Shown here: positions 1-27,908 of the stretch, piece by piece
Layout: each line of letters starts with the position of its first letter
Position numbering within the stretch: position 1 is the first letter of the stretch
NCBI GenBank assembly: GCA_009829735.1
Contig: CM020618.1
Span: 29,302,894 to 29,366,893 of the forward strand
Length of the DNA stretch: 64,000 bases
Source of the DNA: Pyropia yezoensis
Lineage: Eukaryota > Rhodophyta > Bangiophyceae > Bangiales > Bangiaceae
Reading direction: 5' to 3'
Program-made: the position numbers and the translations under genes
Notes under the pieces: generated by a model
The model's database searches: none
What the model saw: only the letters and a program-made list of their open reading frames with translations
What the model was told of the DNA's origin: nothing

Positions 1-936
1 CCCGCTGCACGTCTTCGACCTCGTCCTCGTCCAGGAAGGCAAACTGGTCCGTCCTGAAGTCGGGAGGAAACCCGAGCCTGCGGGAGAACTTCTCCCGTAG
101 GCGGTCCCATACACGACTCATCGCTGTGCCAAGTCGGCCATGTGGAATAACGAAAAAGTAGATATCGGAGAGTCGGAATCGAACCCGTGCCCTTGAGAAG
201 TAGGCGGAATGGCGCGCTCAAACCACTAGGCAGCCGGGCGAAATCCCTGACATCACGGGCCAGATTTGGGGTTTTGGCCCAATCTCATTACGAGTACCTA
301 CCTTTTAGGTAAGCCGATCGGTGATTATGTATTATGCTACAGGCCACAGCGGAGAACAGTCAACCCCTCCTCATATAGAGGCCAAGCGGGGTAAAACTAC
401 CGCCCCAAGGCCTCTCGTGGGAAGACGCGGCCCGTCTCCGGGGGAGATCTCGCAGCCAACCCAAAGCCGGGTGACGCGGAAGTCCCATCCCTCGGAGCGA
501 TCGCGGAGCCCCCGCCGGAAGTCCCGGCGGGCGCTGCATCGTAGGAGGTGTCCTCCATACGTTCATCCAGGGCGTCTGTCTCCACCCCCGGGGTCACCAT
601 GGCTCTCCCCAAGTTAGGGAGAGACGACCTGGCTGCAGACGCACGAGACCCACCTCGAGTTGAGGGGGGCTCGGATCACGGGTAGATGGGTGGCCTCCCC
701 AGCGTGGGGCGGCCCAGGGGAAGGTGAAGAGGATGTGTCGGTGGTGGTGAGGTGCGAACCAAGGAGAGCAAGCTGCCGAGTGGGCAAGCTTGAGGAGAGG
801 GACGGTGAACGTGACCGCCTCCACGTCCACGAGACGTACCCAGGGGGACAGCAAGTCGCGCCCCTACCGCCGAGACGTGCGTTTATACGCCCCCTCGCAG
901 GGCCGACCGGGTCGGTCGGAACTGAGAAGAGGGGAG
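1..936 (-). pseudogene. Decayed 3' internal end of a gypsy element (antisense ORF start plus leader)
   Basis: This stretch aligns with 18,900-19,646 and 26,660-27,414, the part of the intact element that holds the start of its antisense ORF and the leader before the 3' LTR. The antisense ORF would start at the ATG complementary to 597-599. It is broken by a Trp-to-TAG change at 397-399 and by a 201-bp insertion at 141-341. Outside those breaks the frame is still readable to the window edge. Differences from the intact copies are concentrated at third codon positions. The rest of the element lies left of the window, so its true length is unknown. Confidence 0.85.
141..341. mobile_element. 201-bp nested insertion with 5-bp target duplication and tRNA-like boxes
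   Basis: Compared with the uninterrupted copies at about 19,050 and 26,815, exactly 201 bp are inserted here. They are flanked by a GGCCA duplication (136-140 and 342-346). The insert begins TGTGGAATAA and ends with the complement of TGTAGCATAA, so the ends are TGT...ACA with 8 of 10 bases inverted. Read on the minus strand it holds an A-box-like TGCCTAGTGG and a perfect B-box GGTTCGATTCC, the two parts of a tRNA-type Pol III promoter. It also has a TACCTA/TAGGTA hairpin at 295-310. A 5-bp duplication with TG...CA ends fits a small solo LTR or TRIM/SMART-type element; a short TIR element or tRNA-derived SINE is less likely. Confidence 0.65.
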
Positions 937-10717: not shown

Positions 10718-10722
10718 CCGAG
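10718..10722. repeat. Left target-site duplication CCGAG
   Basis: CCGAG directly precedes the 5' LTR and recurs directly after the 3' LTR at 27,904-27,908. A 5-bp duplication is normal for Ty3/gypsy integrases. Confidence 0.9.
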
Positions 10723-11211
10723 TGTGGCAGTATTGACCCCCAGGTAGGGGGGCAACACGTGCCATGCAAGGGGCGGCAGGCCACTAGCCTGATCCGTTCC
10801 TCCCCCTGCATTTGGGTCCATATTCCCTAAGTTTGGGATAGTTAGCTTAGTAGTAAATCCAACTTGGATTTGAGGGTTTTCTGCATTTATCGTCTTGAAT
10901 TTTCGTGTGGCCCGGTGGGCAGGTGCTGGGGTGGGAGATTCTGAGTGGCGAAATTCTGAGTGGACCCTGGGGGGATAAGGGGAGGGACAGCGGGGCTTGG
11001 CCCTGCGTCCCCGTCCCGACCAAGAAACTGTTGGACCACACACCATCCTCTTGTTTGTCCGTGGGAGGTTTGCCCCACAACAGGGGGGTTTGCCCCACAA
11101 CAGGGACAGAGTGTGTGCGACTTGCACTTCTTCCGGTTCCCCCGACACGGGAGGCAGCCCTAGCACACCGCCCCAACTTGGGTGCCGTGTGTGCTAGTGG
11201 TTTTTGCCACA
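10723..11211 (+). repeat. 5' LTR
   Basis: It starts TGTGGCAG and ends TTGCCACA, a 7-bp terminal inverted repeat. It contains a 20-bp unit doubled in tandem (about 11,067-11,104) and a 14-bp doubled GATTCTGAGTGG motif. It differs from the 3' LTR at about 10,746 (A/G), 10,952 (A/G), 11,066 (A/G) and 11,196 (A/C). No TATA box stands out. Confidence 0.95.
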
Positions 11212-11213
11212 TT

Positions 11214-11231
11214 TGGTGGAGCAGCAGGGGA
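11214..11231 (+). promoter_or_regulatory. Candidate primer-binding site
   Basis: TGGTGGAGCAGCAGGGG begins two bases after the 5' LTR. A TGG start complementary to a tRNA 3' CCA, placed here, is the usual minus-strand primer site. I could not match it to a particular tRNA by eye. Confidence 0.55.
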
Positions 11232-11330
11232 CAGAGGTAAACTTTACCTCCGGGTGCACCCGGGTGTAGGGGGCCCTCTGTCTCAGAGGAACGGTGGTCT
11301 TGGACCGTGTCATACGGATCGTCAGCCAAC

Positions 11331-13277
11331 ATGGCTAGCTCGGACCCCCCGTCGTCTGGGGAGTACACGGGTGACGCACGTACTTCAGTGCCTTCGAGTA
11401 CTGGTGAGACGCAGGTAGGTGTACCTGGGGTCGCAGAGGGACTAGAGGTCCCTCAAGCCAGCAGGACTGGAAGTACGGGCGGGCAACAGGCCACCCCGAC
11501 TCAGTCGGGAGTTCACTCGGGTGACACTTCTGATGTGGGTGGGCCGAAGTCTGGCCACCGTGTGGTACACTCAAAGGGAACGTCCCAAGGGGTGAGGACT
11601 GTCCCCGCGGGTTCGACTCGGGCTGGAGCCAACTTTGGCTTGGAGCCGTCGCCAACTAGGCTTTCGGAGGACGGCGGACCTCCGTTGGTCGGCGATGAGC
11701 TCGCGCCCATGCCCCCGGTTGAGACCCCTGAGGAACGTGGTTACCCCTCAGGTGGACTCCCGGAGGCGGACCGAGACTCAACTGGAGTCGTCAATCCACT
11801 CCTCGCGGAAACTGTCCGTCGGGAGGCGACCAATGTGTTGCGGCAGACTTTGCCGGACCTGGTGGTCACGATGACGAATACTATTCTGAATCAGATTGTG
11901 GCGAGTTTGCCAGATGGCCTTAATGTCCAAACCGGATTGGGGCTTTCGAGCCCGCAGGCGCAGGGGGAATCCCCCCTTACGCCTATCTCTGGTCGCCCCG
12001 AACTGGGGGCGACACCTGTGACTCCCAACGAGGGAGCCACACCATACTCGGTGGGGCGTGCGCCCTTCACGGGGGAGTTCCCCCCGGAAACACCGGTGGC
12101 GACACCAAGCGCGCCGCGCCGGACTACAGGCACTGAGAGTGAACTTACCCCAGTGCCACAGCGGCTGTTCCCTCAACGTGCGGTGCCGCCCAAGATCCAG
12201 GTAGCCAACCCGGTCTACCAGAGGATCTTTGACTGTGAGACCTACGCCCTCCACAACAAGTCGGTGGCGTATGGTCCTGACCAGGCCCGAGCCATGGGCC
12301 GTGCCAAGAAGAATGCACTTCATTCTTTTGGGCACAAAGCGGAGTGAGACGGAACTCCCCCCCTCCGTGTCTTTGAGTTCCTACGTCGTTTCACAAAAGC
12401 CTGTGACGACAATGCCATAAGTGAAGGCATGGCTTTTTACATGCTACAGGAGTTTACGAAGGGCGACCTACGGACAGAACTTATGTCCGTCATGCCCAGC
12501 TCCTCAAGTGGAGGCGCTGGGGAGGTGACGTCCTATTTGGAGCTCGTCAACTGGTTGTTGAGAGCCATGGTTGATGAGGCAGCGTTGGCTTCTCAAGTCG
12601 AGGAGTTTACCCAAGCTCATCAGGAAGAGATTGAGGACGAGTTGTCCTTTGCGGAGCGGGTTCGTAAGCTCAACAATCTTTGTGGGTTTCTTCATCCACA
12701 AGCTGTGGTGAAGAGTCGGTTTTTGGAGGGACTCCATTGGTCAGTCCGGATGGAGACCCGGGAGCATAACACTGCCCGGGCGACCCTGGCCGAGTTGGCC
12801 AGGTTCGCCTATCGCAGAGGCGAGGCCTACCGCAAGTTGCGGGAGGAACAACGCCAGGAGCGTCAGGCCGAGTTGGCCAAGGAACGGGAGGAGGCGCGCC
12901 AGGCCAGAGAGTTGAGAGAGGCACGCCGAATCCGCAAGGAGAGGGTGGTAGCTGCCGTGGGAACTTCCCAGGGTACCTCTTCGTCTTCCCCAGTTGGGAA
13001 GACCCCTCCCGGAACGGACCATCGGTGTTGGAACTGCAACTCCGATGGTCACTGGGCATATGATTGCCCCAAGTTGAGTAAACGCATCCAACAACTTGTT
13101 AGGAATGCGAGTAAAAAGTCGGCTACGAACGAAGTACGTTCACTCCGCGAGGGTGGGTCTCGACCGGTCGTTGCGGTCGCCACACCCTCGGCGGAGGAGG
13201 CGGACACGTCGTCCTCGGACTCGTCGTCTTCCTCCCCGCCCTCAGATTCGGACGCCAAGTCGGCGGGAAACGAATGA
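11331..13277 (+). CDS. gag: Gag polyprotein (first copy), with one in-frame TGA
   Basis: The structural protein of the element. The start is the ATG at 11,331 (AACATGGCT context). The first 338 residues are Ser/Thr/Pro/Gly-rich. A TGA at 12,345-12,347 interrupts the frame, which stays open without a shift on both sides. The second part, with a capsid-like helical region rich in Glu/Arg/Leu, ends in a CCHC zinc knuckle, CWNCNSDGHWAYDC (about 13,027-13,068), and an acidic serine tail. The stop overlaps the pol start as ATGA. The TGA could be a mutation, a sequencing error or a readthrough site. The matching position of the second copy lies in the assembly gap, so it cannot be compared. Confidence 0.85.
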
Positions 13278-16200
13278 CCGTTGGGGCTGGTCGTCCGAAG
13301 CTCACAACGGCAGCCTCGGCCAAGTGGGCCAGGAGGACGAACCAACCGCGCCGGATACTGCGGCGACCTAAGGGAGTCCGCCCACCTCGGGTAGGACTCC
13401 CCAAGAACGTAAACCTACGTCGGGTCATCGCGGTGCTGACGGGTGAGAACTTCCAGGTGGCTGGACGGGTGCAACTTGCCCCCGCCCGTGCATGCTGTAC
13501 CCGTATCGTACTTGATACCGGGTCAGGAGCCTCCTTGATACGCAAGTCGCTATTACCAAAGGAGGTGAAGCTCCAACGCTGGAGGTCCAAAGCTGACCAT
13601 ATGATTGACATCAATGGTGGGGTACTTCCCATCGTTGGTGCCGTGACCCTACCAACTAGGTTGGGAACCCATGAGGTCGACGTGACCTATGGCGTAGTTG
13701 AGAATATATCGGTACCCCTGCTTCTGGGTACCCCTTATGTTGTTACACAAGTGCCTTTGATTTGTGGCCCTGAGTACTGGGTCAAGTTGATGAATGGGGA
13801 GACTATCCCCATCCTTGGTAAGGGAAAGTCTGAGGCTCCTGTGACAGTCTCACAGTCGAAGCCTGTTTTCTCTGTGAGGGAAGGGTTTACTGCTACCCTG
13901 CGTTTAGCCCGCAAAGTCACGTTGCCCCCCAACTCGGTGGCGCACGTTGACGTTGTAACTGATTTTTCGGGGAACGGGTTGGTGCACCCTAACCCCCGTC
14001 TTGCTCGCAAGCACCAAGTGCATGTTGCCCTTGGCACGATGGACTCCAAAGCCGGAGTCCCGTGGAGGATCCAGGTGATGAACCTGAGCCCGACGCCCAA
14101 GTACTTCAAGTCGGGAGCCAAGTTCGGCTATATCGACCAACACGAGGGACCGGTAGTAGCGGTCACCCTCAACGCGGGCGCAAGTAGCGACCCGAAGTCC
14201 GGAAAGGAGAAGCATCAAGCCAAGTCGGCCACCTCTCCTCGGCCCCATGTGAACATGGAGGGTGTTCCCCCCAGGTTGAGGGTTCAAGTTGAACGCCTCT
14301 TGGACCAATATCACAAGTTGTGGGATGGTCAATTGGGACTCATGAGAGCTACCCAACACCGGATCGAGTTGAAGCCCGGTGCACCCCCTATACGCCAACA
14401 ACCGTATAGGGGAGGACCTCGTTCAAGGGCCCTCGTTAAGGAGCAAGTTGCTCGCATGGAGGCCCTCGATATGATCGAGGCCAGCAACGCCGAGTGGGCG
14501 AGTCCGGTGGTTATAGTCCCCAAAGTTGATGGGACCCCCCGGTTTTGTATCGACTACCGTAAGCTCAACGAGAGCACGGTGAAGGACAGTTATCCCCTAC
14601 CTAGGATGGATGACTGTCTGGACTCTCTGGGGGAGGCGAACGTGTTCTCTACCCTGGACTGTAACGCGGGGTACTGGCAAATTCCCATTGCCCCGGAGGA
14701 CAGGCATAAAACTACCTTTACCTGTCACTGTGGTACCTACCAGTGCAAGCGCCTACCGTTTGGTCTGTGTTACGCGCCGGCAACTTTCCAGCGCGCTATG
14801 GACATGATTCTGGCCGGAGTACGGTGGCAGATCTGTCTTGTGTACCTAGACGATATAATTGTGTTCTCCCGAAGTCCGGAGGAACACATTGGCCATCTTG
14901 GCCAGGTGTTCAAGCTACTTGCTGACGCCAGTGTGTCACTGAAGGCGAGTAAGTGCCACCTCTTTACTCAAGAGGTGGAGTACTTGGGACATGTTGTCCA
15001 TCCGGGGCGTCTCAGTGTTAACGAGAAGAACTTGAGGGCCATACGTAAGGCTCAGTACCCCCGGACCCAGACCCAGATGAGGAGCTTCCTCGGGATGTGT
15101 AACGTGTACCGACGTTTCACCAAGGGCTTCGCCAAGGTGGCGAAGCCGTTGAATGAGCTAGTGAGCTCAACGCTACCGAAGAACCTGCCTCCCCCAAGTC
15201 GGGTGGAGCAGGAATCCTTTGAGGCTCTTCGGGACCTTCTGCTGAAGCCCCCCATCTTGGCTATTCCCAGGTTGGGAGGCCACTACATCCTGGATGTGGA
15301 CGCTAGCTACGACCAACTTGGTTGTGTGTTGCTTCAGCAGCAGCCGGACAAGGAGTACTTGCCGGTGGGATACTTCAGTAAGGGGCTGAACTCGGCCGAG
15401 AAGAACTACGGAGTCACCGAGTTGGAAGGACTCGCAGTGGTATGGGCGGTGACGTCACTTCGTCACTACCTAGAGGGTGAGAAGTTCCTCATCCGCTGTG
15501 ACCACCGCGCGTTGCAGTTTATCTTCAAGACGGACTGTACGAACACTCGTCTCAACCGGTGGAGGGTGCGACTGGCACCCTTCAACTTTGACATTGAGTA
15601 CCGACCTGGCAGGCAACATGCCCTTGCCGATGGCCTCTCTCGGGTACCCACCGAGGGGCTGGACACTAACCCAGTCGATGAGGACATCCCCATCGTGGGG
15701 GTAGTCACGCGCTCGGGTCAGGCGTTGAACCCCGAGGCGCCAGGGAACAAGAAGTACTTGCCCCTGTCCCTGGACGAGGTGGTGAAGGCCCAGGCCGAGG
15801 ATCCCTTCTGCAAGTCGCAGAGGGATACATTGGATACGGTGGTTGAGACGCGCTTCTTTCTGGGAGATGATGGCCTCCTCATGAGGAGGGGGGTATTCCA
15901 GGGGACTGAACAACTTGTCGTCCCCGCATCCCTCAAGGACAGTATCCTTGAGAGGGAGCACAACGCTCCCACGGGTGGACACCTGGGGTGTAGTAGACTG
16001 TACCAGACCCTGAGGACCAGGTACTACTGGCCGTCCATGGTGGTGGACATCTACAGTTGGGTGGCTGCCTGCACAAGTTGTGCACAGAATCGTCTGATGG
16101 AACGGCGGCCTACTACGGCTATGCTATTGTTCCCGGCCAAGGAGCCCTTCGCCGCGTTGGCGATGGACATCCTTGGGCCACTGCCAGCGACCGAGGAAGG

Positions 16201-17257
16201 CAACCAGTACCTCCTGGTCATCTGTGACCGCTTCACGAAACTTACGCGAGCGATCCCACTGGCAGAGATCACGGCCATGTCGGTCGTGTCAGCCTTCCTA
16301 GATCACTGGGTTGCCGCGTATGGCATCCCAGATAGTACACTATCGGACAATGGACCGCAATTTGCGTCTGTACTGTTTCAGGGAGTGCTGGATATGTTGG
16401 GGGTTAAGGCAAACTATGCCACCCCCTACCACCCACAAACTAATGGGCAGGTGGAGCGCTTCAACAAAACTATTGTTAGGCAGCTGCGCCACTATGTGAG
16501 TGAGCACGTGAAGACGTGGGACCAATACATTTCTATCCTTACTACTGCCTACAATTCGCAGGTTCACTCATCTACAGGGGAAGTACCCCTCGCTTTTGTG
16601 ACCCCCCGTCGTGTGCGGTCTATTGCCGTGCGGCGGTCGCTCCCAACTGGGGAGGGTAGTGGCAGTACGCCTACTCCTACTGAGAGTAAGGCGGAGTTCG
16701 CTGCTAGGCTGGAGCACCTCATCCCTAAAGTCAGGGCTGAGATGGACAAAGCGCAAAAGCGCTACAAGCGTACCTTTGACAAAACGGTGCGCAATGCTAA
16801 ACATGTCCCCGAGCAGGGTGACTGGGTGCTGGTACACTCGCACACCCCAACTGGGGGTAAGCTGGTATTCCAGACGAAGGGACCGTACCAGGTCCTTCGT
16901 ACTGATGGGCGGCGCTTCACCATCGAAAGTGACGATGGGGTCCGCACAGTGAACGGACAGGACGTGGTCAAAGTTGCACCACCGCCTGCAGGCGACCCAG
17001 CTTGGGCACGTGCGTTGGAGTCGTGGCGCCTCCCCTTACTGCCTGCGGCCAAACAGGGCCCGCAGGAGTACGTGTTCGATAAGTTCATCGACCACGGATG
17101 GGATGAAGACACTGACCGCCTCATGTTGAGGGTGCGTTGGTTTGGCTACAAAGCCAAGGACGATACATGGGAGTATGTGGAGGACCTTCCTGCTGAGAAG
17201 GTCCGGGCGTACTGTGCCCGGAATGAGATAGACCCTAACAGCCCTCCCTCAACGTGA
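13274..17257 (+). CDS. pol: Pol polyprotein (first copy): protease, RT, RNase H, integrase, chromodomain
   Basis: A 1,327-residue intact polyprotein that copies the element RNA and integrates it. Aspartic protease DTGSGAS is at residues 81-87. Reverse transcriptase follows with FCIDYRKLN near 424 and the catalytic YLDD at 524-527. RNase H starts near 672 (DVDAS). The integrase has an HHCC finger near 896-935 (HNAPTGGH...CTSC) and a D965-D1025-E1061 core, the last two 35 residues apart. A GPY-type module follows (GPYQVLR). A chromodomain begins near 1,265 (EYVFDKF, then VRWFGY and TWEYVEDL), placing it among chromoviruses. The ATG lies in the gag stop (ATGA), -1 relative to gag, so translation probably couples by reinitiation or a frameshift. 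Confidence 0.97.
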   Translation: MTVGAGRPKLTTAASAKWARRTNQPRRILRRPKGVRPPRVGLPKNVNLRRVIAVLTGENFQVAGRVQLAPARACCTRIVLDTGSGASLIRKSLLPKEVKLQRWRSKADHMIDINGGVLPIVGAVTLPTRLGTHEVDVTYGVVENISVPLLLGTPYVVTQVPLICGPEYWVKLMNGETIPILGKGKSEAPVTVSQSKPVFSVREGFTATLRLARKVTLPPNSVAHVDVVTDFSGNGLVHPNPRLARKHQVHVALGTMDSKAGVPWRIQVMNLSPTPKYFKSGAKFGYIDQHEGPVVAVTLNAGASSDPKSGKEKHQAKSATSPRPHVNMEGVPPRLRVQVERLLDQYHKLWDGQLGLMRATQHRIELKPGAPPIRQQPYRGGPRSRALVKEQVARMEALDMIEASNAEWASPVVIVPKVDGTPRFCIDYRKLNESTVKDSYPLPRMDDCLDSLGEANVFSTLDCNAGYWQIPIAPEDRHKTTFTCHCGTYQCKRLPFGLCYAPATFQRAMDMILAGVRWQICLVYLDDIIVFSRSPEEHIGHLGQVFKLLADASVSLKASKCHLFTQEVEYLGHVVHPGRLSVNEKNLRAIRKAQYPRTQTQMRSFLGMCNVYRRFTKGFAKVAKPLNELVSSTLPKNLPPPSRVEQESFEALRDLLLKPPILAIPRLGGHYILDVDASYDQLGCVLLQQQPDKEYLPVGYFSKGLNSAEKNYGVTELEGLAVVWAVTSLRHYLEGEKFLIRCDHRALQFIFKTDCTNTRLNRWRVRLAPFNFDIEYRPGRQHALADGLSRVPTEGLDTNPVDEDIPIVGVVTRSGQALNPEAPGNKKYLPLSLDEVVKAQAEDPFCKSQRDTLDTVVETRFFLGDDGLLMRRGVFQGTEQLVVPASLKDSILEREHNAPTGGHLGCSRLYQTLRTRYYWPSMVVDIYSWVAACTSCAQNRLMERRPTTAMLLFPAKEPFAALAMDILGPLPATEEGNQYLLVICDRFTKLTRAIPLAEITAMSVVSAFLDHWVAAYGIPDSTLSDNGPQFASVLFQGVLDMLGVKANYATPYHPQTNGQVERFNKTIVRQLRHYVSEHVKTWDQYISILTTAYNSQVHSSTGEVPLAFVTPRRVRSIAVRRSLPTGEGSGSTPTPTESKAEFAARLEHLIPKVRAEMDKAQKRYKRTFDKTVRNAKHVPEQGDWVLVHSHTPTGGKLVFQTKGPYQVLRTDGRRFTIESDDGVRTVNGQDVVKVAPPPAGDPAWARALESWRLPLLPAAKQGPQEYVFDKFIDHGWDEDTDRLMLRVRWFGYKAKDDTWEYVEDLPAEKVRAYCARNEIDPNSPPST

Positions 17258-17368
17258 GGGAAGGCCGAGCAGCAGTGCCACGAGAGTGCTTCAAGTCGAA
17301 GTGGTACTCAGAGTAGCTTTTAACTACAGCCCTAACCCTCACACTCTCACAACAAAGGCAGCTGCCAA

Positions 17369-19311
17369 CTAGGCACGCATGCTAGACTCTCCCACTCCAC
17401 GGCCCTCGCCCTCACGTGGAGGCGAGCGGCGAGACCCACGCCGATAACGGTCTCCACTCGTTGGAGGGGGCGGCGGCTCCAAGTCGGAACCGTCGCGCCC
17501 CTCACGGTCGCGCAAGTGGCGCCGACCGTGGCCACTCTTTTGCCTGGTCTTGCGCGCAAGTTTGCGACGCAGACGCTGGACAGACTCCGTCTCCGACGGG
17601 GTAGAGGACTCCGAAACGGAGTAAGACAACTCGTCTTCCAATACGGAAGGAGAGCGCTGCGAGTGTCGGCGACGACGGCGAGGAGGCGAGTATGCCCGGC
17701 TCGCGCGACGTTTGCCACGCCCAAATGGGGCTGGCTGGGGCATGATAGCCCCAATGCGAGCCAACTCGGCTGTCATAAACTCCGCCACCGACTCGCAACT
17801 CGCGGTCGCCACTGCAGTACGAACGCGCTCCTCAAGTTGAGGAGTCTCGGAACTCTGTAGGGTTGCGGTCGACGCGGCCAACCAGGAAATGGTGCGCACC
17901 AACGTGGTGATCATCATCTCTGAGGTTAGAGGCGTGGGCGGCAACACCAACTTGGGGTATACCGTCAGGACGGTGGCCCCCAAGTTAGGGGACACCGGGG
18001 TGGAAGACTCCACGGCCACGCTGATCGGGATGTTCCCGTGAGGTTGGAAAGGAACCGGAGGAAGCGGAGGGGCCCGCCGAGGTGGCGGTACCCGGGTGTA
18101 ACTGCGACCCCGACTTGGGGCTCCCGCAGTGGGTTGAGTCATGTGGTCATCATAGGACGGCACGGCCGTAACTATGGGCTTGTCCGGGGGTGGCGCAGTG
18201 TGGCGATCCACCCCCGGGGCATACGGGTAGTCCCCGATGCCCAACCCCTCTCGTAGGACCACACGGCCGTCGTGAAGTTCACGAGCGACCCACACGAACT
18301 GGCGAAGTGCGCCATCGTCCTTGGGCCCACGAGTGGGGCGGCGCAACTTGTGCTCAATGCTCTCCCACTCGATAAACTTATGGAGCCGGAGCATCTCCTC
18401 AAGTAGAGTGAGTTGTCCTGATGAGCACCCCTCAGCAACTAGCTGAGGGGTGAGCTGTTCCAAACCCTGGATGAGCCGGAGGGGGAGATGCCAGAGCATC
18501 CCCCGCCGCTGAACACAGGACACCCAGGTCGACATGACCTCGAGGAGCCACTGGGTGGCCAACATGGCCCACACCAGGTGATCAGGGGCAGCCGTCAACA
18601 TGACGGAGCCGAAGTGGTCAAGCAACCGGGGCAACAACGCCGGGAACCCGTAGGGGACCTCAACTTGAGGCCACCACTCGGGCTTCTTCGGATAGTACTG
18701 CTCCTTACTGGCAGCAGACTGTTGAGGAAACTCAAGTTGAGCCGAGGTCACCAAGTAGGGACCTCGCCGGAAGTCTTTCTCCATCCGCACATCAAAGTGA
18801 TGAGTGTGCGGATCGGCCTCGTGGAGGTACGGTGGGCGAGTTGCCACAGCGTCCCACGTGAAGGTCGGAAAGTCGCCGGGACCCGGGATAGTTCCCCGCG
18901 GTCTACCATGGCCTTGGCACGTTGGACGTCTTCAACCTCCTCGTCGTCCAGGAAGGCAAACTGGTCCGTCCTGAAGCCGGCCGGGAACCCGATCCTACGG
19001 GGATACTTCTCCCGTAGGCGGTCCCATACCCGGCCCATCGCTGCGCCAAGTCGGCCACAGCGAAGAACAGTCAACCCCTCCTCATAAAGAGGCCAAGCGG
19101 GGTAAAACCACCGCCCCAAGGCCTCACGCGGGACAACTTGTCCCGCCTCCGGGGGAGATCCCGCCGTCAACCCAAAGCCGGGTGACGCGGGAGTCCCATC
19201 CCCCGGAGCGATCGCGGAGCCCCCGCCGGAAGTCCCGGCGGGTGCTGCACCGTAGGAGGTGTCCTCCATGCGCTCGTCAAGAGAGTCCGTCTCCACTCCC
19301 GGAGTCGCCAT
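17369..19311 (-). pseudogene. Antisense ORF of the element (first copy), 1-bp frameshift
   Basis: Same gene as the intact minus-strand ORF at 25,133-27,076. A C-run at 18,894-18,897 has four C where the second copy has five. This splits the frame into an amino-terminal part (from the ATG at 19,311) and a carboxy-terminal part. The rest is almost identical, so the break is either a recent mutation or a homopolymer sequencing error. Confidence 0.8.
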
Positions 19312-19646
19312 GACTCTCCCCAAGTAAGGGAGAGACGCTCTGGCTATCGCAGAACGAGACCCGCCTCGAGTTGACGGGGACTCGGATCGTGGGTATACGG
19401 GTGGCCTCCCCAGCGTGGGGCGGCCCAGTGGAAAGTGAAAGGGAGGTGGTGGTGAAGGTGAAGTGTGAACTGAAGAAAGCAAGCTGCCGAGTGGGTAAGC
19501 TTGAGGAGAGGGGCGGTCAACGTGACCGCCTCCACATCCGCGTTACGTACACGCTGGGGGACAGCAAGTCGCGCCCCCAACGCGAGACGTGCGTTTACGC
19601 ACCCCCTCACAGGGCGACCGGGTCGGTCGGAACTGAGGAGAGGGAG

Positions 19647-19963
19647 TGTGGCAGTATTGACCCCCAGGTGGGGGGGCAACACGTGCCATGCAAGGGGCGG
19701 CAGGCCACTAGCCTGATCCGTTCCTCCCCTGCATTTGGGTCCATATTCCCTAAGTTTGGATAGTTAGCTTAGTAGTAAATCCAACTTGGATTTTGAGGGT
19801 TTTCTGCATTTATCGTCTTGAATTTTCGTGTGGCCCGGTGGGCAGGTGCTGGGTGGGAGATTCTGAGTGGCGAGATTCTGAGTGGACCCTGGGGGGATAA
19901 GGGGAGGGACAGCGGGGCTTGCCCTGCGTCCCCGTCCCGACCAAGAAACTGTTGGACCACACA
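19647..19963 (+). repeat. Middle LTR, partial, running into the gap
   Basis: It starts TGTGGCAG and stops at the gap after about 317 bp. At both diagnostic sites that it covers it matches the 3' LTR, not the 5' LTR. In the 400 bp before the gap there are at least eight single-base indels, mostly in short homopolymers (for example TCCCCTGC for TCCCCCTGC and TTTGGATAG for TTTGGGATAG), which is what a poorly polished contig end looks like. Confidence 0.85.
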
Positions 19964-20463
19964 NNNNNNNNNNNNNNNNNNNNNNNNNNNNNNNNNNNNN
20001 NNNNNNNNNNNNNNNNNNNNNNNNNNNNNNNNNNNNNNNNNNNNNNNNNNNNNNNNNNNNNNNNNNNNNNNNNNNNNNNNNNNNNNNNNNNNNNNNNNNN
20101 NNNNNNNNNNNNNNNNNNNNNNNNNNNNNNNNNNNNNNNNNNNNNNNNNNNNNNNNNNNNNNNNNNNNNNNNNNNNNNNNNNNNNNNNNNNNNNNNNNNN
20201 NNNNNNNNNNNNNNNNNNNNNNNNNNNNNNNNNNNNNNNNNNNNNNNNNNNNNNNNNNNNNNNNNNNNNNNNNNNNNNNNNNNNNNNNNNNNNNNNNNNN
20301 NNNNNNNNNNNNNNNNNNNNNNNNNNNNNNNNNNNNNNNNNNNNNNNNNNNNNNNNNNNNNNNNNNNNNNNNNNNNNNNNNNNNNNNNNNNNNNNNNNNN
20401 NNNNNNNNNNNNNNNNNNNNNNNNNNNNNNNNNNNNNNNNNNNNNNNNNNNNNNNNNNNNNNN
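19964..20463. other. Assembly gap of exactly 500 N
   Basis: A placeholder gap. By comparison with the first copy it would hide about 1,658 bp, from mid-LTR to the middle of gag, if a second copy really follows. Any reading frame that crosses it is meaningless. Confidence 1.
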
Positions 20464-21040
20464 AGCTGTGGTGAAGAGTCGGTTTTTGGAGGGACTCCAT
20501 TGGTCAGTCCGGATGGAGACCCGGGAGCATAACACTGCCCGGGCGACCCTGGCCGAGTTGGCCAGGTTCGCCTATCGCAGAGGCGAGGCCTACCGCAAGT
20601 TGCGGGAGGAACAACGCCAGGAGCGTCAGGCCGAGTTGGCCAAGGAACGGGAGGAGGCGCGCCAGGCCAGAGAGTTGAGAGAGGCACGCCGAATCCGCAA
20701 GGAGAGGGTGGTAGCTGCCGTGGGAACTTCCCAGGGTACCTCTTCGTCTTCCCCAGTTGGGAAGACCCCTCCCGGAACGGACCATCGGTGTTGGAACTGC
20801 AACTCCGATGGTCACTGGGCATATGATTGCCCCAAGTTGAGTAAACGCATCCAACAACTTGTTAGGAATGCGAGTAAAAAGTCGGCTACGAACGAAGTAC
20901 GTTCACTCCGCGAGGGTGGGTCTCGACCGGTCGTTGCGGTCGCCACACCCTCGGCGGAGGAGGCGGACACGTCGTCCTCGGACTCGTCGTCTTCCTCCCC
21001 GCCCTCAGATTCGGACGCCAAGTCGGCGGGAAACGAATGA
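20464..21040 (+). CDS. gag: Gag, 3' part (second copy)
   Basis: The frame is open from the gap edge to the TGA at 21,038-21,040, and the sequence matches the first copy from 12,701 onward. It includes the CCHC knuckle and the acidic serine tail. The 5' part, including the position of the in-frame TGA of the first copy, is lost in the gap. Confidence 0.85.
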
Positions 21041-24000
21041 CCGTTGGGGCTGGTCGTCCGAAGCTCACAACGGCAGCCTCGGCCAAGTGGGCCAGGAGGA
21101 CGAACCAACCGCGCCGGATACTGCGGCGACCTAAGGGAGTCCGCCCACCTCGGGTAGGACTCCCCAAGAACGTAAACCTACGTCGGGTCATCGCGGTGCT
21201 GACGGGTGAGAACTTCCAGGTGGCTGGACGGGTGCAACTTGCCCCCGCCCGTGCATGCTGTACCCGTATCGTACTTGATACCGGGTCAGGAGCCTCCTTG
21301 ATACGCAAGTCGCTATTACCAAAGGAGGTGAAGCTCCAACGCTGGAGGTCCAAAGCTGACCATATGATTGACATCAATGGTGGGGTACTTCCCATCGTTG
21401 GTGCCGTGACCCTACCAACTAGGTTGGGAACCCATGAGGTCGACGTGACCTATGGCGTAGTTGAGAATATATCGGTACCCCTGCTTCTGGGTACCCCTTA
21501 TGTTGTTACACAAGTGCCTTTGATTTGTGGCCCTGAGTACTGGGTCAAGTTGATGAATGGGGAGACTATCCCCATCCTTGGTAAGGGAAAGTCTGAGGCT
21601 CCTGTGACAGTCTCACAGTCGAAGCCTGTTTTCTCTGTGAGGGAAGGGTTTACTGCTACCCTGCGTTTAGCCCGCAAAGTCACGTTGCCCCCCAACTCGG
21701 TGGCGCACGTTGACGTTGTAACTGATTTTTCGGGGAACGGGTTGGTGCACCCTAACCCCCGTCTTGCTCGCAAGCACCAAGTGCATGTTGCCCTTGGCAC
21801 GATGGACTCCAAAGCCGGAGTCCCGTGGAGGATCCAGGTGATGAACCTGAGCCCGACGCCCAAGTACTTCAAGTCGGGAGCCAAGTTCGGCTATATCGAC
21901 CAACACGAGGGACCGGTAGTAGCGGTCACCCTCAACGCGGGCGCAAGTAGCGACCCGAAGTCCGGAAAGGAGAAGCATCAAGCCAAGTCGGCCACCTCTC
22001 CTCGGCCCCATGTGAACATGGAGGGTGTTCCCCCCAGGTTGAGGGTTCAAGTTGAACGCCTCTTGGACCAATATCACAAGTTGTGGGATGGTCAATTGGG
22101 ACTCATGAGAGCTACCCAACACCGGATCGAGTTGAAGCCCGGTGCACCCCCTATACGCCAACAACCGTATAGGGGAGGACCTCGTTCAAGGGCCCTCGTT
22201 AAGGAGCAAGTTGCTCGCATGGAGGCCCTCGATATGATCGAGGCCAGCAACGCCGAGTGGGCGAGTCCGGTGGTTATAGTCCCCAAAGTTGATGGGACCC
22301 CCCCGGTTTTGTATCGACTACCGTAAGCTCAACGAGAGCACGGTGAAGGACAGTTATCCCCTACCTAGGATGGATGACTGTCTGGACTCTCTGGGGGAGG
22401 CGAACGTGTTCTCTACCCTGGACTGTAACGCGGGGTACTGGCAAATTCCCATTGCCCCGGAGGACAGGCATAAAACTACCTTTACCTGTCACTGTGGTAC
22501 CTACCAGTGCAAGCGCCTACCGTTTGGTCTGTGTTACGCGCCGGCAACTTTCCAGCGCGCTATGGACATGATTCTGGCCGGAGTACGGTGGCAGATCTGT
22601 CTTGTGTACCTAGACGATATAATTGTGTTCTCCCGAAGTCCGGAGGAACACATTGGCCATCTTGGCCAGGTGTTCAAGCTACTTGCTGACGCCAGTGTGT
22701 CACTGAAGGCGAGTAAGTGCCACCTCTTTACTCAAGAGGTGGAGTACTTGGGACATGTTGTCCATCCGGGGCGTCTCAGTGTTAACGAGAAGAACTTGAG
22801 GGCCATACGTAAGGCTCAGTACCCCCGGACCCAGACCCAGATGAGGAGCTTCCTCGGGATGTGTAACGTGTACCGACGTTTCACCAAGGGCTTCGCCAAG
22901 GTGGCGAAGCCGTTGAATGAGCTAGTGAGCTCAACGCTACCGAAGAACCTGCCTCCCCCAAGTCGGGTGGAGCAGGAATCCTTTGAGGCTCTTCGGGACC
23001 TTCTGCTGAAGCCCCCCATCTTGGCTATTCCCAGGTTGGGAGGCCACTACATCCTGGATGTGGACGCTAGCTACGACCAACTTGGTTGTGTGTTGCTTCA
23101 GCAGCAGCCGGACAAGGAGTACTTGCCGGTGGGATACTTCAGTAAGGGGCTGAACTCGGCCGAGAAGAACTACGGAGTCACCGAGTTGGAAGGACTCGCA
23201 GTGGTATGGGCGGTGACGTCACTTCGTCACTACCTAGAGGGTGAGAAGTTCCTCATCCGCTGTGACCACCGCGCGTTGCAGTTTATCTTCAAGACGGACT
23301 GTACGAACACTCGTCTCAACCGGTGGAGGGTGCGACTGGCACCCTTCAACTTTGACATTGAGTACCGACCTGGCAGGCAACATGCCCTTGCCGATGGCCT
23401 CTCTCGGGTACCCACCGAGGGGCTGGACACTAACCCAGTCGATGAGGACATCCCCATCGTGGGGGTAGTCACGCGCTCGGGTCAGGCGTTGAACCCCGAG
23501 GCGCCAGGGAACAAGAAGTACTTGCCCCTGTCCCTGGACGAGGTGGTGAAGGCCCAGGCCGAGGATCCCTTCTGCAAGTCGCAGAGGGATACATTGGATA
23601 CGGTGGTTGAGACGCGCTTCTTTCTGGGAGATGATGGCCTCCTCATGAGGAGGGGGGTATTCCAGGGGACTGAACAACTTGTCGTCCCCGCATCCCTCAA
23701 GGACAGTATCCTTGAGAGGGAGCACAACGCTCCCACGGGTGGACACCTGGGGTGTAGTAGACTGTACCAGACCCTGAGGACCAGGTACTACTGGCCGTCC
23801 ATGGTGGTGGACATCTACAGTTGGGTGGCTGCCTGCACAAGTTGTGCACAGAATCGTCTGATGGAACGGCGGCCTACTACGGCTATGCTATTGTTCCCGG
23901 CCAAGGAGCCCTTCGCCGCGTTGGCGATGGACATCCTTGGGCCACTGCCAGCGACCGAGGAAGGCAACCAGTACCTCCTGGTCATCTGTGACCGCTTCAC

Positions 24001-25021
24001 GAAACTTACGCGAGCGATCCCACTGGCAGAGATCACGGCCATGTCGGTCGTGTCAGCCTTCCTAGATCACTGGGTTGCCGCGTATGGCATCCCAGATAGT
24101 ACACTATCGGACAATGGACCGCAATTTGCGTCTGTACTGTTTCAGGGAGTGCTGGATATGTTGGGGGTTAAGGCAAACTATGCCACCCCCTACCACCCAC
24201 AAACTAATGGGCAGGTGGAGCGCTTCAACAAAACTATTGTTAGGCAGCTGCGCCACTATGTGAGTGAGCACGTGAAGACGTGGGACCAATACATTTCTAT
24301 CCTTACTACTGCCTACAATTCGCAGGTTCACTCATCTACAGGGGAAGTACCCCTCGCTTTTGTGACCCCCCGTCGTGTGCGGTCTATTGCCGTGCGGCGG
24401 TCGCTCCCAACTGGGGAGGGTAGTGGCAGTACGCCTACTCCTACTGAGAGTAAGGCGGAGTTCGCTGCTAGGCTGGAGCACCTCATCCCTAAAGTCAGGG
24501 CTGAGATGGACAAAGCGCAAAAGCGCTACAAGCGTACCTTTGACAAAACGGTGCGCAATGCTAAACATGTCCCCGAGCAGGGTGACTGGGTGCTGGTACA
24601 CTCGCACACCCCAACTGGGGGTAAGCTGGTATTCCAGACGAAGGGACCGTACCAGGTCCTTCGTACTGATGGGCGGCGCTTCACCATCGAAAGTGACGAT
24701 GGGGTCCGCACAGTGAACGGACAGGACGTGGTCAAAGTTGCACCACCGCCTGCAGGCGACCCAGCTTGGGCACGTGCGTTGGAGTCGTGGCGCCTCCCCT
24801 TACTGCCTGCGGCCAAACAGGGCCCGCAGGAGTACGTGTTCGATAAGTTCATCGACCACGGATGGGATGAAGACACTGACCGCCTCATGTTGAGGGTGCG
24901 TTGGTTTGGCTACAAAGCCAAGGACGATACATGGGAGTATGTGGAGGACCTTCCTGCTGAGAAGGTCCGGGCGTACTGTGCCCGGAATGAGATAGACCCT
25001 AACAGCCCTCCCTCAACGTGA
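21037..25021 (+). pseudogene. pol: Pol (second copy), frameshifted in RT
   Basis: Nearly identical to the intact pol at 13,274-17,257 but with seven C instead of six at about 22,298-22,304. That moves the frame just before the FCIDYRK motif of reverse transcriptase. The upstream part ends at 22,326 and the downstream part stays open to 25,021. All other domains, including protease, YLDD box, DDE integrase and chromodomain, are preserved. If both copies are one locus, this extra C is a consensus error, not a biological mutation. Confidence 0.9.
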
Positions 25022-25132
25022 GGGAAGGCCGAGCAGCAGTGCCACGAGAGTGCTTCAAGTCGAAGTGGTACTCAGAGTAGCTTTTAACTACAGCCCTAAC
25101 CCTCACACTCTCACAACAAAGGCAGCTGCCAA

Positions 25133-27076
25133 CTAGGCACGCATGCTAGACTCTCCCACTCCACGGCCCTCGCCCTCACGTGGAGGCGAGCGGCGAGACC
25201 CACGCCGATAACGGTCTCCACTCGTTGGAGGGGGCGGCGGCTCCAAGTCGGAACCGTCGCGCCCCTCACGGTCGCGCAAGTGGCGCCGACCGTGGCCACT
25301 CTTTTGCCTGGTCTTGCGCGCAAGTTTGCGACGCAGACGCTGGACAGACTCCGTCTCCGACGGGGTAGAGGACTCCGAAACGGAGTAAGACAACTCGTCT
25401 TCCAATACGGAAGGAGAGCGCTGCGAGTGTCGGCGACGACGGCGAGGAGGCGAGTATGCCCGGCTCGCGCGACGTTTGCCACGCCCAAATGGGGCTGGCT
25501 GGGGCATGATAGCCCCAATGCGAGCCAACTCGGCTGTCATAAACTCCGCCACCGACTCGCAACTCGCGGTCGCCACTGCAGTACGAACGCGCTCCTCAAG
25601 TTGAGGAGTCTCGGAACTCTGTAGGGTTGCGGTCGACGCGGCCAACCAGGAAATGGTGCGCACCAACGTGGTGATCATCATCTCTGAGGTTAGAGGCGTG
25701 GGCGGCAACACCAACTTGGGGTATACCGTCAGGACGGTGGCCCCCAAGTTAGGGGACACCGGGGTGGAAGACTCCACGGCCACGCTGATCGGGATGTTCC
25801 CGTGAGGTTGGAAAGGAACCGGAGGAAGCGGAGGGGCCCGCCGAGGTGGCGGTACCCGGGTGTAACTGCGACCCCGACTTGGGGCTCCCGCAGTGGGTTG
25901 AGTCATGTGGTCATCATAGGACGGCACGGCCGTAACTATGGGCTTGTCCGGGGGTGGCGCAGTGTGGCGATCCACCCCCGGGGCATACGGGTAGTCCCCG
26001 ATGCCCAACCCCTCTCGTAGGACCACACGGCCGTCGTGAAGTTCACGAGCGACCCACACGAACTGGCGAAGTGCGCCATCGTCCTTGGGCCCACGAGTGG
26101 GGCGGCGCAACTTGTGCTCAATGCTCTCCCACTCGATAAACTTATGGAGCCGGAGCATCTCCTCAAGTAGAGTGAGTTGTCCTGATGAGCACCCCTCAGC
26201 AACTAGCTGAGGGGTGAGCTGTTCCAAACCCTGGATGAGCCGGAGGGGGAGATGCCAGAGCATCCCCCGCCGCTGAACACAGGACACCCAGGTCGACATG
26301 ACCTCGAGGAGCCACTGGGTGGCCAACATGGCCCACACCAGGTGATCAGGGGCAGCCGTCAACATGACGGAGCCGAAGTGGTCAAGCAACCGGGGCAACA
26401 ACGCCGGGAACCCGTAGGGGACCTCAACTTGAGGCCACCACTCGGGCTTCTTCGGATAGTACTGCTCCTTACTGGCAGCAGACTGTTGAGGAAACTCAAG
26501 TTGAGCCGAGGTCACCAAGTAGGGACCTCGCCGGAAGTCTTTCTCCATCCGCACATCAAAGTGATGAGTGTGTGGATCGGCCTCGTGGAGGTACGGTGGG
26601 CGAGTTGCCACAGCGTCCCACGTGAAGGTCGGAAAGTCGCCGGGACCCGGGATAGTTCCCCCGCGGTCTACCATGGCCTTGGCACGTTGGACGTCTTCAA
26701 CCTCCTCGTCGTCCAGGAAGGCAAACTTGTCCGTCCTGAAGCCGGCCGGGAACCCGATCCTACGGGGATACTTCTCCCGTAGGCGGTCCCATACCCGGCC
26801 CATCGCTGCGCCAAGTCGGCCACAGCGAAGAACAGTCAACCCCTCCTCATAAAGAGGCCAAGCGGGGTAAAACCACCGCCCCAAGGCCTCACGCGGGACA
26901 ACTTGTCCCGCCTCCGGGGGAGATCCCGCCGTCAACCCAAAGCCGGGTGACGCGGGAGTCCCATCCCCCGGAGCGATCGCGGAGCCCCCGCCGGAAGTCC
27001 CGGCGGGTGCTGCACCGTAGGAGGTGTCCTCCATGCGCTCGTCAAGAGAGTCCGTCTCCACTCCCGGAGTCGCCAT
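25133..27076 (-). CDS. Antisense accessory ORF of the chromovirus, intact
   Basis: 647 residues from the ATG at 27,076, opposite in strand to gag and pol, ending 111 bp downstream of the pol stop. I do not recognise it. The amino end is Gly/Pro/Ser-rich. Residues about 100-330 look globular, with many Trp, His, Leu and Arg (for example EKYPRR, WWPQVEVPYGF, LLDHFGSVML). Residues from about 530 onward are Arg/Ser-rich (RRRRRHSQRSPS), as in nucleic-acid-binding tails. The start lies 338 bp from the 3' LTR, which could promote it in antisense. Third-position differences dominate against the decayed copy at 1-600, arguing for real coding. Some plant gypsy elements carry antisense extra ORFs; whether this one is related is unknown. 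Confidence 0.75.
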   Translation of the reverse strand: MATPGVETDSLDERMEDTSYGAAPAGTSGGGSAIAPGDGTPASPGFGLTAGSPPEAGQVVPREALGRWFYPAWPLYEEGLTVLRCGRLGAAMGRVWDRLREKYPRRIGFPAGFRTDKFAFLDDEEVEDVQRAKAMVDRGGTIPGPGDFPTFTWDAVATRPPYLHEADPHTHHFDVRMEKDFRRGPYLVTSAQLEFPQQSAASKEQYYPKKPEWWPQVEVPYGFPALLPRLLDHFGSVMLTAAPDHLVWAMLATQWLLEVMSTWVSCVQRRGMLWHLPLRLIQGLEQLTPQLVAEGCSSGQLTLLEEMLRLHKFIEWESIEHKLRRPTRGPKDDGALRQFVWVARELHDGRVVLREGLGIGDYPYAPGVDRHTAPPPDKPIVTAVPSYDDHMTQPTAGAPSRGRSYTRVPPPRRAPPLPPVPFQPHGNIPISVAVESSTPVSPNLGATVLTVYPKLVLPPTPLTSEMMITTLVRTISWLAASTATLQSSETPQLEERVRTAVATASCESVAEFMTAELARIGAIMPQPAPFGRGKRRASRAYSPPRRRRRHSQRSPSVLEDELSYSVSESSTPSETESVQRLRRKLARKTRQKSGHGRRHLRDREGRDGSDLEPPPPPTSGDRYRRGSRRSPPREGEGRGVGESSMRA

Positions 27077-27401
27077 GACTCTCCCCAAGTAAGGGAGAGA
27101 CGCTCTGGCTATCGCAGAACGAGACCCGCCTCGAGTTGACGGGGACTCGGATCGTGGGTATACGGGTGGCCTCCCCAGCGTGGGGCGGCCCAGTGGAAAG
27201 TGAAAGGGAGGTGGTGGTGAAGGTGAAGTGTGAACTGAAGAAAGCAAGCTGCCGAGTGGGTAAGCTTGAGGAGAGGGGCGGTCAACGTGACCGCCTCCAC
27301 ATCCGCGTTACGTACACGCTGGGGGACAGCAAGTCGCGCCCCCAACGCCGAGACGTGCGTTTACGCACCCCCTCACAGGGCCGACCGGGTCGGTCGGAAC
27401 T

Positions 27402-27414
27402 GAGGAGAGGGGAG
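27402..27414 (+). promoter_or_regulatory. Polypurine tract
   Basis: GAGGAGAGGGGAG directly abuts the 3' LTR, the standard plus-strand priming site. The same tract precedes the middle LTR. Confidence 0.8.
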
Positions 27415-27903
27415 TGTGGCAGTATTGACCCCCAGGTGGGGGGGCAACACGTGCCATGCAAGGGGCGGCAGGCCACTAGCCTGATCCGTTCCTCCCCCTG
27501 CATTTGGGTCCATATTCCCTAAGTTTGGGATAGTTAGCTTAGTAGTAAATCCAACTTGGATTTGAGGGTTTTCTGCATTTATCGTCTTGAATTTTCGTGT
27601 GGCCCGGTGGGCAGGTGCTGGGGTGGGAGATTCTGAGTGGCGAGATTCTGAGTGGACCCTGGGGGGATAAGGGGAGGGACAGCGGGGCTTGGCCCTGCGT
27701 CCCCGTCCCGACCAAGAAACTGTTGGACCACACACCATCCTCTTGTTTGTCCGTGGGGGGTTTGCCCCACAACAGGGGGGTTTGCCCCACAACAGGGACA
27801 GAGTGTGTGCGACTTGCACTTCTTCCGGTTCCCCCGACACGGGAGGCAGCCCTAGCACACCGCCCCAACTTGGGTGCCGTGTGTGCTCGTGGTTTTTGCC
27901 ACA
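27415..27903 (+). repeat. 3' LTR
   Basis: 489 bp, TGTGGCAG...TTGCCACA, 4 substitutions from the 5' LTR. It is followed at once by the CCGAG duplication. Confidence 0.95.
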
Positions 27904-27908
27904 CCGAG
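27904..27908. repeat. Right target-site duplication CCGAG
   Basis: Partner of 10,718-10,722. No CCGAG brackets the middle LTR on either side, as expected if that LTR was not made by a separate integration. Confidence 0.9.

What the first reader, a model, noticed from the sequence alone, without database searches (positions are those of the whole stretch)
25133..27076. Antisense ORF in a chromovirus shows third-codon-position bias, so it is probably a real protein gene
A 647-codon frame runs opposite to gag-pol between pol and the 3' LTR. I aligned its start with the decayed copy at 1-600 by hand over about 125 codons. Differences fall about 12, 6 and 29 at positions 1, 2 and 3 of the antisense frame. 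Random decay would spread them evenly. The copies therefore diverged under selection for the antisense protein. The product has a globular-looking middle and an Arg/Ser tail and matches no family I know. Plant gypsy elements with antisense ORFs are known, but this is a different lineage.
Basis: partly seen in the sequence, partly recalled or inferred. Interest (0 to 1): 0.78.

Follow-up and report, generated by a model that had tools for sequence, protein, structure and literature searches.

The report
Conserved antisense gene in nori retrotransposons
Jumping genes of the nori seaweed carry, on the strand opposite to their usual genes, a further protein gene of unknown function that selection has kept intact in several distantly related families.

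Summary
The 647-codon frame at 25133-27076(-) lies convergent to pol, before the 3' LTR of a Ty3/gypsy element with a weak chromodomain. Scaffold sizes identify the genome as Pyropia yezoensis (nori). In 20 copies ranked by pol alone, changes shared by two or more copies are 81 synonymous to 17 nonsynonymous in the antisense frame (omega 0.08); private changes are 61:146 (omega 0.96, neutral). Periodicity starts at the ATG and ends at the stop. The decayed copy gives dN/dS 0.22 (pol 0.16). Homologous antisense ORFs occur in at least three other gypsy families of the genome (20-31% identity, E to 8e-10). Of 143 genome matches to a related protein, 21 lie within 7 kb of a listed RNase H, all antisense and downstream. 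Two database proteins match this genome at best by 61% and 68%, so other taxa probably carry it. No Pfam, PHROGs or significant PDB relative; plant TRP28 is absent; no confident fold. It is a real, probably old antisense accessory gene, unlike the plant ones. A nuclear regulatory role is inference; no RNA data were on hand.

The parts
25133..27076 (-). antisense gene (aORF), 647 codons plus stop; N-terminal ~60 residues low complexity, conserved core about residues 90-375, Pro-rich linker, basic Arg/Ser tail
   Evidence: selection; homologues
27077..27414 (-). leader of the antisense gene between its ATG and the 3' LTR; frame open for 77 more codons (stop at 27308-27310) but without clear codon periodicity
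   Evidence: shared variants 7/7/11 by codon position here against 3/3/15 just inside the ATG
25022..25132 (.). 111-base spacer between the convergent pol and aORF stops
   Evidence: shared variants 3/1/4, few
21037..25021 (+). protease/RT/RNase H/integrase/chromodomain pol of this copy, listed as two frames (21037-22326, 22289-25021)
   Evidence: one-base difference near 22298 from the first copy
27415..27903 (+). 3' LTR, 489 bases, 4 mismatches to the 5' LTR
10723..11211 (+). 5' LTR of the same insertion
10718..10722 (+). target-site duplication CCGAG, repeated at 27904-27908
19964..20463 (.). 500-N assembly gap with the internal region repeated on both sides
17369..19311 (-). near-identical second reading of the aORF left of the gap, frame broken by one base near 18893; probably an assembly duplicate
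1..600 (-). N-terminal part of the aORF of an older, decayed element of the same family (the rest lies left of the window), interrupted by an insertion at about 141-341

Best explanation
SHOWN: the frame is a real protein-coding gene of a Ty3/gypsy element of Pyropia yezoensis, under purifying selection about as strong as on pol, and it belongs to an antisense gene family shared by several diverged gypsy families of that genome. INFERRED: it is translated from its own antisense mRNA, which starts in or near the 3' LTR and runs convergent to the gag-pol RNA. The product acts in trans as an accessory factor that helps the element multiply. The basic Arg/Ser tail suggests that it enters the nucleus and binds nucleic acid, so the likeliest job is control of element transcription or RNA handling, as proposed for plant Retand/Grande antisense proteins and described for retroviral HBZ. 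My own split: coding gene under selection 0.97; own antisense mRNA from in or near the 3' LTR 0.7; nuclear regulatory role 0.4.
For: Codon test in 20 pol-ranked copies: shared S81:N17 (omega 0.084), singletons S61:N146 (omega 0.96); pol in the same copies: shared S36:N11 (omega 0.119). Periodicity begins at the ATG and ends at the stop (50 copies). The other five frames have 10-24 stops. Decayed element dN/dS 0.218. Homologues in other families: L055 E 3e-8, L058 E 8e-10 and L057 E 4e-6. A family-C-like protein without a close match in this genome finds, over the whole genome, a group at 26-30% identity with E 3e-10 to 3e-8 that includes family-A copies. Family B pair dN/dS 0.198. Of 143 such matches, 21 (18 places) have a listed RNase H within 7 kb, 21 of 21 antisense and downstream. 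Highest 19-residue hydropathy mean 1.23, 33 Lys/Arg in the last 147 residues, no similarity to the element's Gag.
Against: No transcript, promoter or protein evidence was available. AlphaFold gave no usable model (mean pLDDT 35.2 and 34.0). Two groups whose pol end resembles that of families C/D (L053/L056 and L054) have no detectable homologue, so the gene is not indispensable in every lineage. Four of 18 full-length copies in the pol-ranked set have a stop and two of the 20 have large deletions. In the 30 copies ranked by the aORF itself singletons are not neutral (omega 0.59), as that ranking would cause. The basic tail is not alike in sequence between families; nuclear entry and nucleic-acid binding are read from composition alone. 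Family B rests on one pair with 22 differences. One family-B match has its nearest listed RNase H upstream, 6.9 kb away.
Confidence: 0.65

Rival explanations
1. The product is structural or acts in particles (a second Gag-like or packaging protein) rather than a nuclear regulator.
For: A conserved core plus a basic tail resembles capsid plus nucleocapsid in layout (inference).
Against: No similarity to the element's own Gag by BLASTP or hhalign; no zinc knuckle or Pfam gag domain; the element has a protein with a CCHC knuckle on the sense strand.
Confidence: 0.2
2. The product counters host silencing of the element.
For: It would explain strong selection on a gene outside gag-pol and its absence in some families; inference.
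Against: No direct evidence; no Pfam domain in the product.
Confidence: 0.2
3. A captured host gene carried as a passenger.
For: Capture of cellular genes is discussed as an origin of plant extra ORFs (PMC7264820, passages).
Against: No named or Pfam-bearing homologue among the proteins returned from 5.8 billion; the one EukProt gene model checked, P0011, matches a diverged family-A-like place in this genome at 100% and other copies at 71-84%; presence in families 20-31% alike argues for old residence; selection shows it is not a passenger now.
Confidence: 0.05
4. The frame is open by chance, or the codon signal comes from a constraint on the sense strand or from the mutation spectrum.
For: GC-rich DNA has long spurious frames (90 ORFs of 200 aa or more in the window).
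Against: Expectation weighted by the observed spectrum gives 0.714 nonsynonymous, met by singletons and missed by shared variants; sense frames hold 10-24 stops; no clear periodicity in leader or spacer.
Confidence: 0.02

Closest known systems
Retand/Tat-lineage plant gypsy elements with antisense ORFs between pol and 3' LTR, TRP28 domain PF04195 (Retand, Grande gene23, RIRE2)
   Same: Position between pol and 3' LTR, antisense to gag-pol, present in many copies and several families, function unknown; nuclear protein in Grande (PMC11963269 and PMC7264820, passages)
   Different: Retand is a non-chromovirus lineage of plants with a TRP28 protein. PF04195 is not found in this genome nor in this protein.
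Retroviral antisense genes such as HBZ of HTLV-1
   Same: Antisense gene; HBZ is nuclear (PMC11963269, passages) and HTLV has an antisense promoter inside the 3' LTR (PMC7264820, passages)
   Different: No sequence relation found (no Pfam; no PDB sequence match by single query); transcript start not known here.
Algal gypsy elements with chromodomains (Ectocarpus; chromoviruses)
   Same: Gypsy element of an alga with a chromodomain after integrase
   Different: The passages seen of the Ectocarpus paper (PMC12477816) mention no antisense ORF.

Membership tests
Ty3/gypsy LTR retrotransposon | LTRs with target-site duplication; protease-RT-RNase H-integrase order | tested here: met
   LTRs 489 bases, 4 mismatches, TSD CCGAG; RVT_1, RNase H, H2C2 and rve in order; protease match below cut-off
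chromovirus | chromodomain at the integrase C-terminus | tested here: inconclusive
   PF00385 at the right place, 19.4 and 19.9 bits, below the curated cut-off of 25.1
chromovirus | RT phylogeny inside the chromovirus clade | not tested
   no RT tree was built
Retand/TRP28 antisense ORF | antisense ORF between pol and 3' LTR | tested here: met
   related loci antisense and downstream of RNase H in 21 of 21 testable matches
Retand/TRP28 antisense ORF | TRP28 domain PF04195 | tested here: not met
   0 Pfam families for the product; 0 candidates and 0 matches to PF04195 in the genome at E up to 10
retroviral antisense gene (HBZ-like) | antisense transcript starting in the 3' LTR | not testable with these tools
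   no RNA data on hand
env-like third ORF | transmembrane segment, sense orientation | tested here: not met
   antisense; highest 19-residue hydropathy mean 1.23

The most novel reading that the evidence does not exclude
Red-algal gypsy elements acquired, before their present families split (integrase regions of families A and B now 49% identical), an antisense accessory gene unrelated to plant TRP28 and to retroviral antisense proteins, and several lineages have kept it as a trans-acting nuclear factor while others lost it. Antisense accessory genes would then have arisen repeatedly as a general solution in LTR retroelements.
Probability: 0.5. Interest if true: 0.75.

Novelty: new variant of a known kind. 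Interest (0 to 1): 0.62.

Why it matters
The passages seen on plant antisense ORFs argue from open frames and conservation. Here a natural control is built in: private changes are neutral and inherited changes are constrained, in the same copies and the same codons. That makes a protein-level function close to certain without any experiment. The gene family has no entry in the libraries searched, is carried in many copies in a cultivated seaweed, and links families about 20-31% alike. It gives the question 'what do antisense genes do for retroelements?' a case independent of flowering plants and retroviruses.

Tried and rejected
Structure: two AlphaFold jobs on the core, with 6 and 18 sequences, gave mean pLDDT 35.2 and 34.0. 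No fold search was run, since matches to such models mean nothing. PDB by profile gave only N-alpha-acetyltransferase 10 at E 0.065-0.095 (4 sequences): not significant, not pursued. Pfam gave one sub-threshold hit on a fragment (E 0.16). IMG/VR gave no relative of P0001; a scan with the wider alignment could not run. Literature: the listings of nine searches of the held PMC library showed no paper on red-algal antisense ORFs (one search listed 10 of 17); this is one licence-limited library, so 'not in print' is not claimed. The 30 copies ranked by the aORF protein itself are biased towards synonymous change, so I lean on the 20 pol-ranked copies. An early run on unoriented loci gave meaningless counts and was discarded. 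L059-L063 show no homologue, but no matching pol end was found next to the region in them, so they are not counted as absences. A first position count used only part of the rows (80 of 143 and 7 of 65, the 7 picked with the RNase H list in view); one search replaces it with all rows.

Full report
WHERE. The window is C1:29302894-29366893 of a 107.5-Mb genome whose contigs C1-C3 measure 43.6, 34.3 and 29.4 Mb. The Pyropia yezoensis assembly has scaffolds of 43.6, 34.3 and 29.4 Mb, 65% GC, and 48% repeats in which LTR elements are predominant (PMC7423979, passages). The window is therefore nori, a red alga; no name came with the genome, so this is inference from sizes and GC.

THE ELEMENT. One gypsy insertion spans 10723-27903: LTRs of 489 bases with 4 mismatches, target-site duplication CCGAG on both sides, a protein with a CCHC knuckle (taken as Gag), RT, RNase H, integrase and a weak chromodomain. 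Its internal region appears twice around a 500-N gap. The two readings differ at 12 places, 10 of them single-base indels; 8 of the 12 lie within 400 bases of the gap. I read the first copy as an assembly duplicate; a true tandem is not excluded.

THE FRAME. The 647-codon frame (27076 to 25133, minus) runs convergent to pol, 111 bases from the pol stop. No Pfam, PHROGs or PDB sequence matches the product.

SELECTION. The whole decayed element gives 50/36/125 and dN/dS 0.218 in the aORF, and 0.163 in pol. (b) I fetched 20 copies ranked by pol, blind to the aORF (taken from the 102 scored of 4854 candidates). 18 of 20 carry the full-length aORF; 2 (L042, L050) lack large parts. Of the 18, 14 are open; L039 has an inserted base and a stop, L041, L048 and L049 one stop each, at four different codons. 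The stop of L048, codon 68, is also a stop in the decayed element. Changes found in two or more copies are S81:N17; changes in one copy are S61:N146; the spectrum-weighted neutral expectation is 0.714 nonsynonymous. So private changes are neutral (omega 0.96, p 0.76) and inherited ones constrained (omega 0.084, p 1.4e-28). Pol in the same copies: shared S36:N11, singletons S39:N40; a singleton omega of 0.40 there is expected because the copies were ranked by pol. (c) In 30 copies ranked by the aORF itself the split is alike, S75:N8 against S50:N72, with the bias that ranking brings (singleton omega 0.59). (d) In the 50 copies of both sets the shared variants fall 7/7/11 by codon position in the open leader before the ATG, 3/3/15 in the first 81 codons, stay weighted to the third position to the last codon (3/2/9), and 3/1/4 in the spacer. 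The gene is thus bounded by the ATG and stop given. (e) Of 68 top-scoring genome matches (of 3653 candidates) 4 hold a stop; this set is ranked by the aORF, so the low number proves little.

RELATIVES. Sequence beyond pol was sampled from further gypsy families. L055 (and L064, same family B) has an antisense frame just past pol that matches residues 156-314 at E 3e-8. L058 (family D) matches at 8e-10 and L057 (family C) at 4e-6; the family-B protein matches L057 at 1e-10 and L058 at 2e-10. The L055/L064 pair differs 7/2/13 by codon position, dN/dS 0.198. Family D continues past one stop to align with the family-C protein P0003 over its whole length at 57%. L053/L056 and L054, whose pol ends resemble those of C and D (60-76% over 73-87 residues), show no homologue. 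An alignment search of 5.8 billion proteins returned 14 proteins at E up to 1, none with a precomputed Pfam domain; earlier searches with the single protein found one, at 95% identity. Searching the genome with P0005 (best match 68%, so probably from another taxon) gave 143 matches: from 68% down to 38%, then a group at 26-30% with E 3e-10 to 3e-8, three of whose places are family-A copies. P0013 (best match 61%) also seems foreign to this genome. P0011, a EukProt gene model, is 100% identical to one place here and 71-84% to other family-A-like copies, so such copies have been taken as genes before; whether that place lies in an element was not checked. Position: of all 143 rows (18 separate places) have one of the 150 RNase H matches within 7 kb; 21 of 21 are antisense and downstream, 17 of them at 2.93-3.05 kb; 122 have none listed, which says nothing, since only the best 150 RNase H matches were shown. 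Of all 65 rows (family B), 5 are antisense and downstream, each at 1,904 bases, 1 has its nearest listed RNase H 6.9 kb on the other side, and 59 have none listed.

HOW IT MAY WORK. The protein has a low-complexity N-terminus, a conserved core (in families A and B about YYPK......VE.P.GF, with related residues in C and D), a Pro-rich linker and a basic Arg/Ser tail. It has no strongly hydrophobic stretch and is unlike Gag. Position and composition point to a separate antisense mRNA and a nuclear, nucleic-acid-binding accessory protein; this is analogy with Grande/Retand proteins and HBZ (PMC7264820, PMC11963269, passages), not a result. A particle protein or an anti-silencing factor remain open.

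NOVELTY. [quoted passage not shown] their hallmark PF04195 is absent here. This is a new variant: another protein family, in red algae, with direct evidence of protein-level selection. The listings of nine searches of the held library showed no report of it.

Noticed in passing
window 19964-20463 with 12701-19963 and 20464-27734: 500-N gap flanked by two 99.8% identical readings of the same element; differences are mostly single-base indels near the gap, so probably an assembly duplicate. Regularly spaced element matches elsewhere (for example C2:33844459, 33850906, 33857353) may be the same or real tandems.
   Followed up: partly
window about 141-341 (-): Insertion of about 200 bases in the decayed aORF with a tRNA-like B-box stretch (GGTTCGATTCC; motif recalled); looks like a tRNA-derived SINE. 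ARAGORN calls no tRNA in the window.
   Followed up: partly
C2:17012049-17012630(-) (protein P0011): A EukProt gene model is identical to a diverged copy of this antisense ORF in this genome, so public gene sets contain transposon antisense genes as if they were host genes.
   Followed up: partly
L053 1912-2889(-), L056 593-1570(-): A gypsy family with a C/D-like pol end has another, low-complexity antisense frame of 326 codons in two copies in place of the conserved gene; loss or replacement not resolved.
   Followed up: partly
window 40001-62000: Mostly very GC-rich stretch (66-84% by 2-kb block) with many short-period repeats and long frames on both strands.
   Followed up: no
window 22298: One-base difference between the two readings of pol; frame intact in the left reading, split in the right one.
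   Followed up: no
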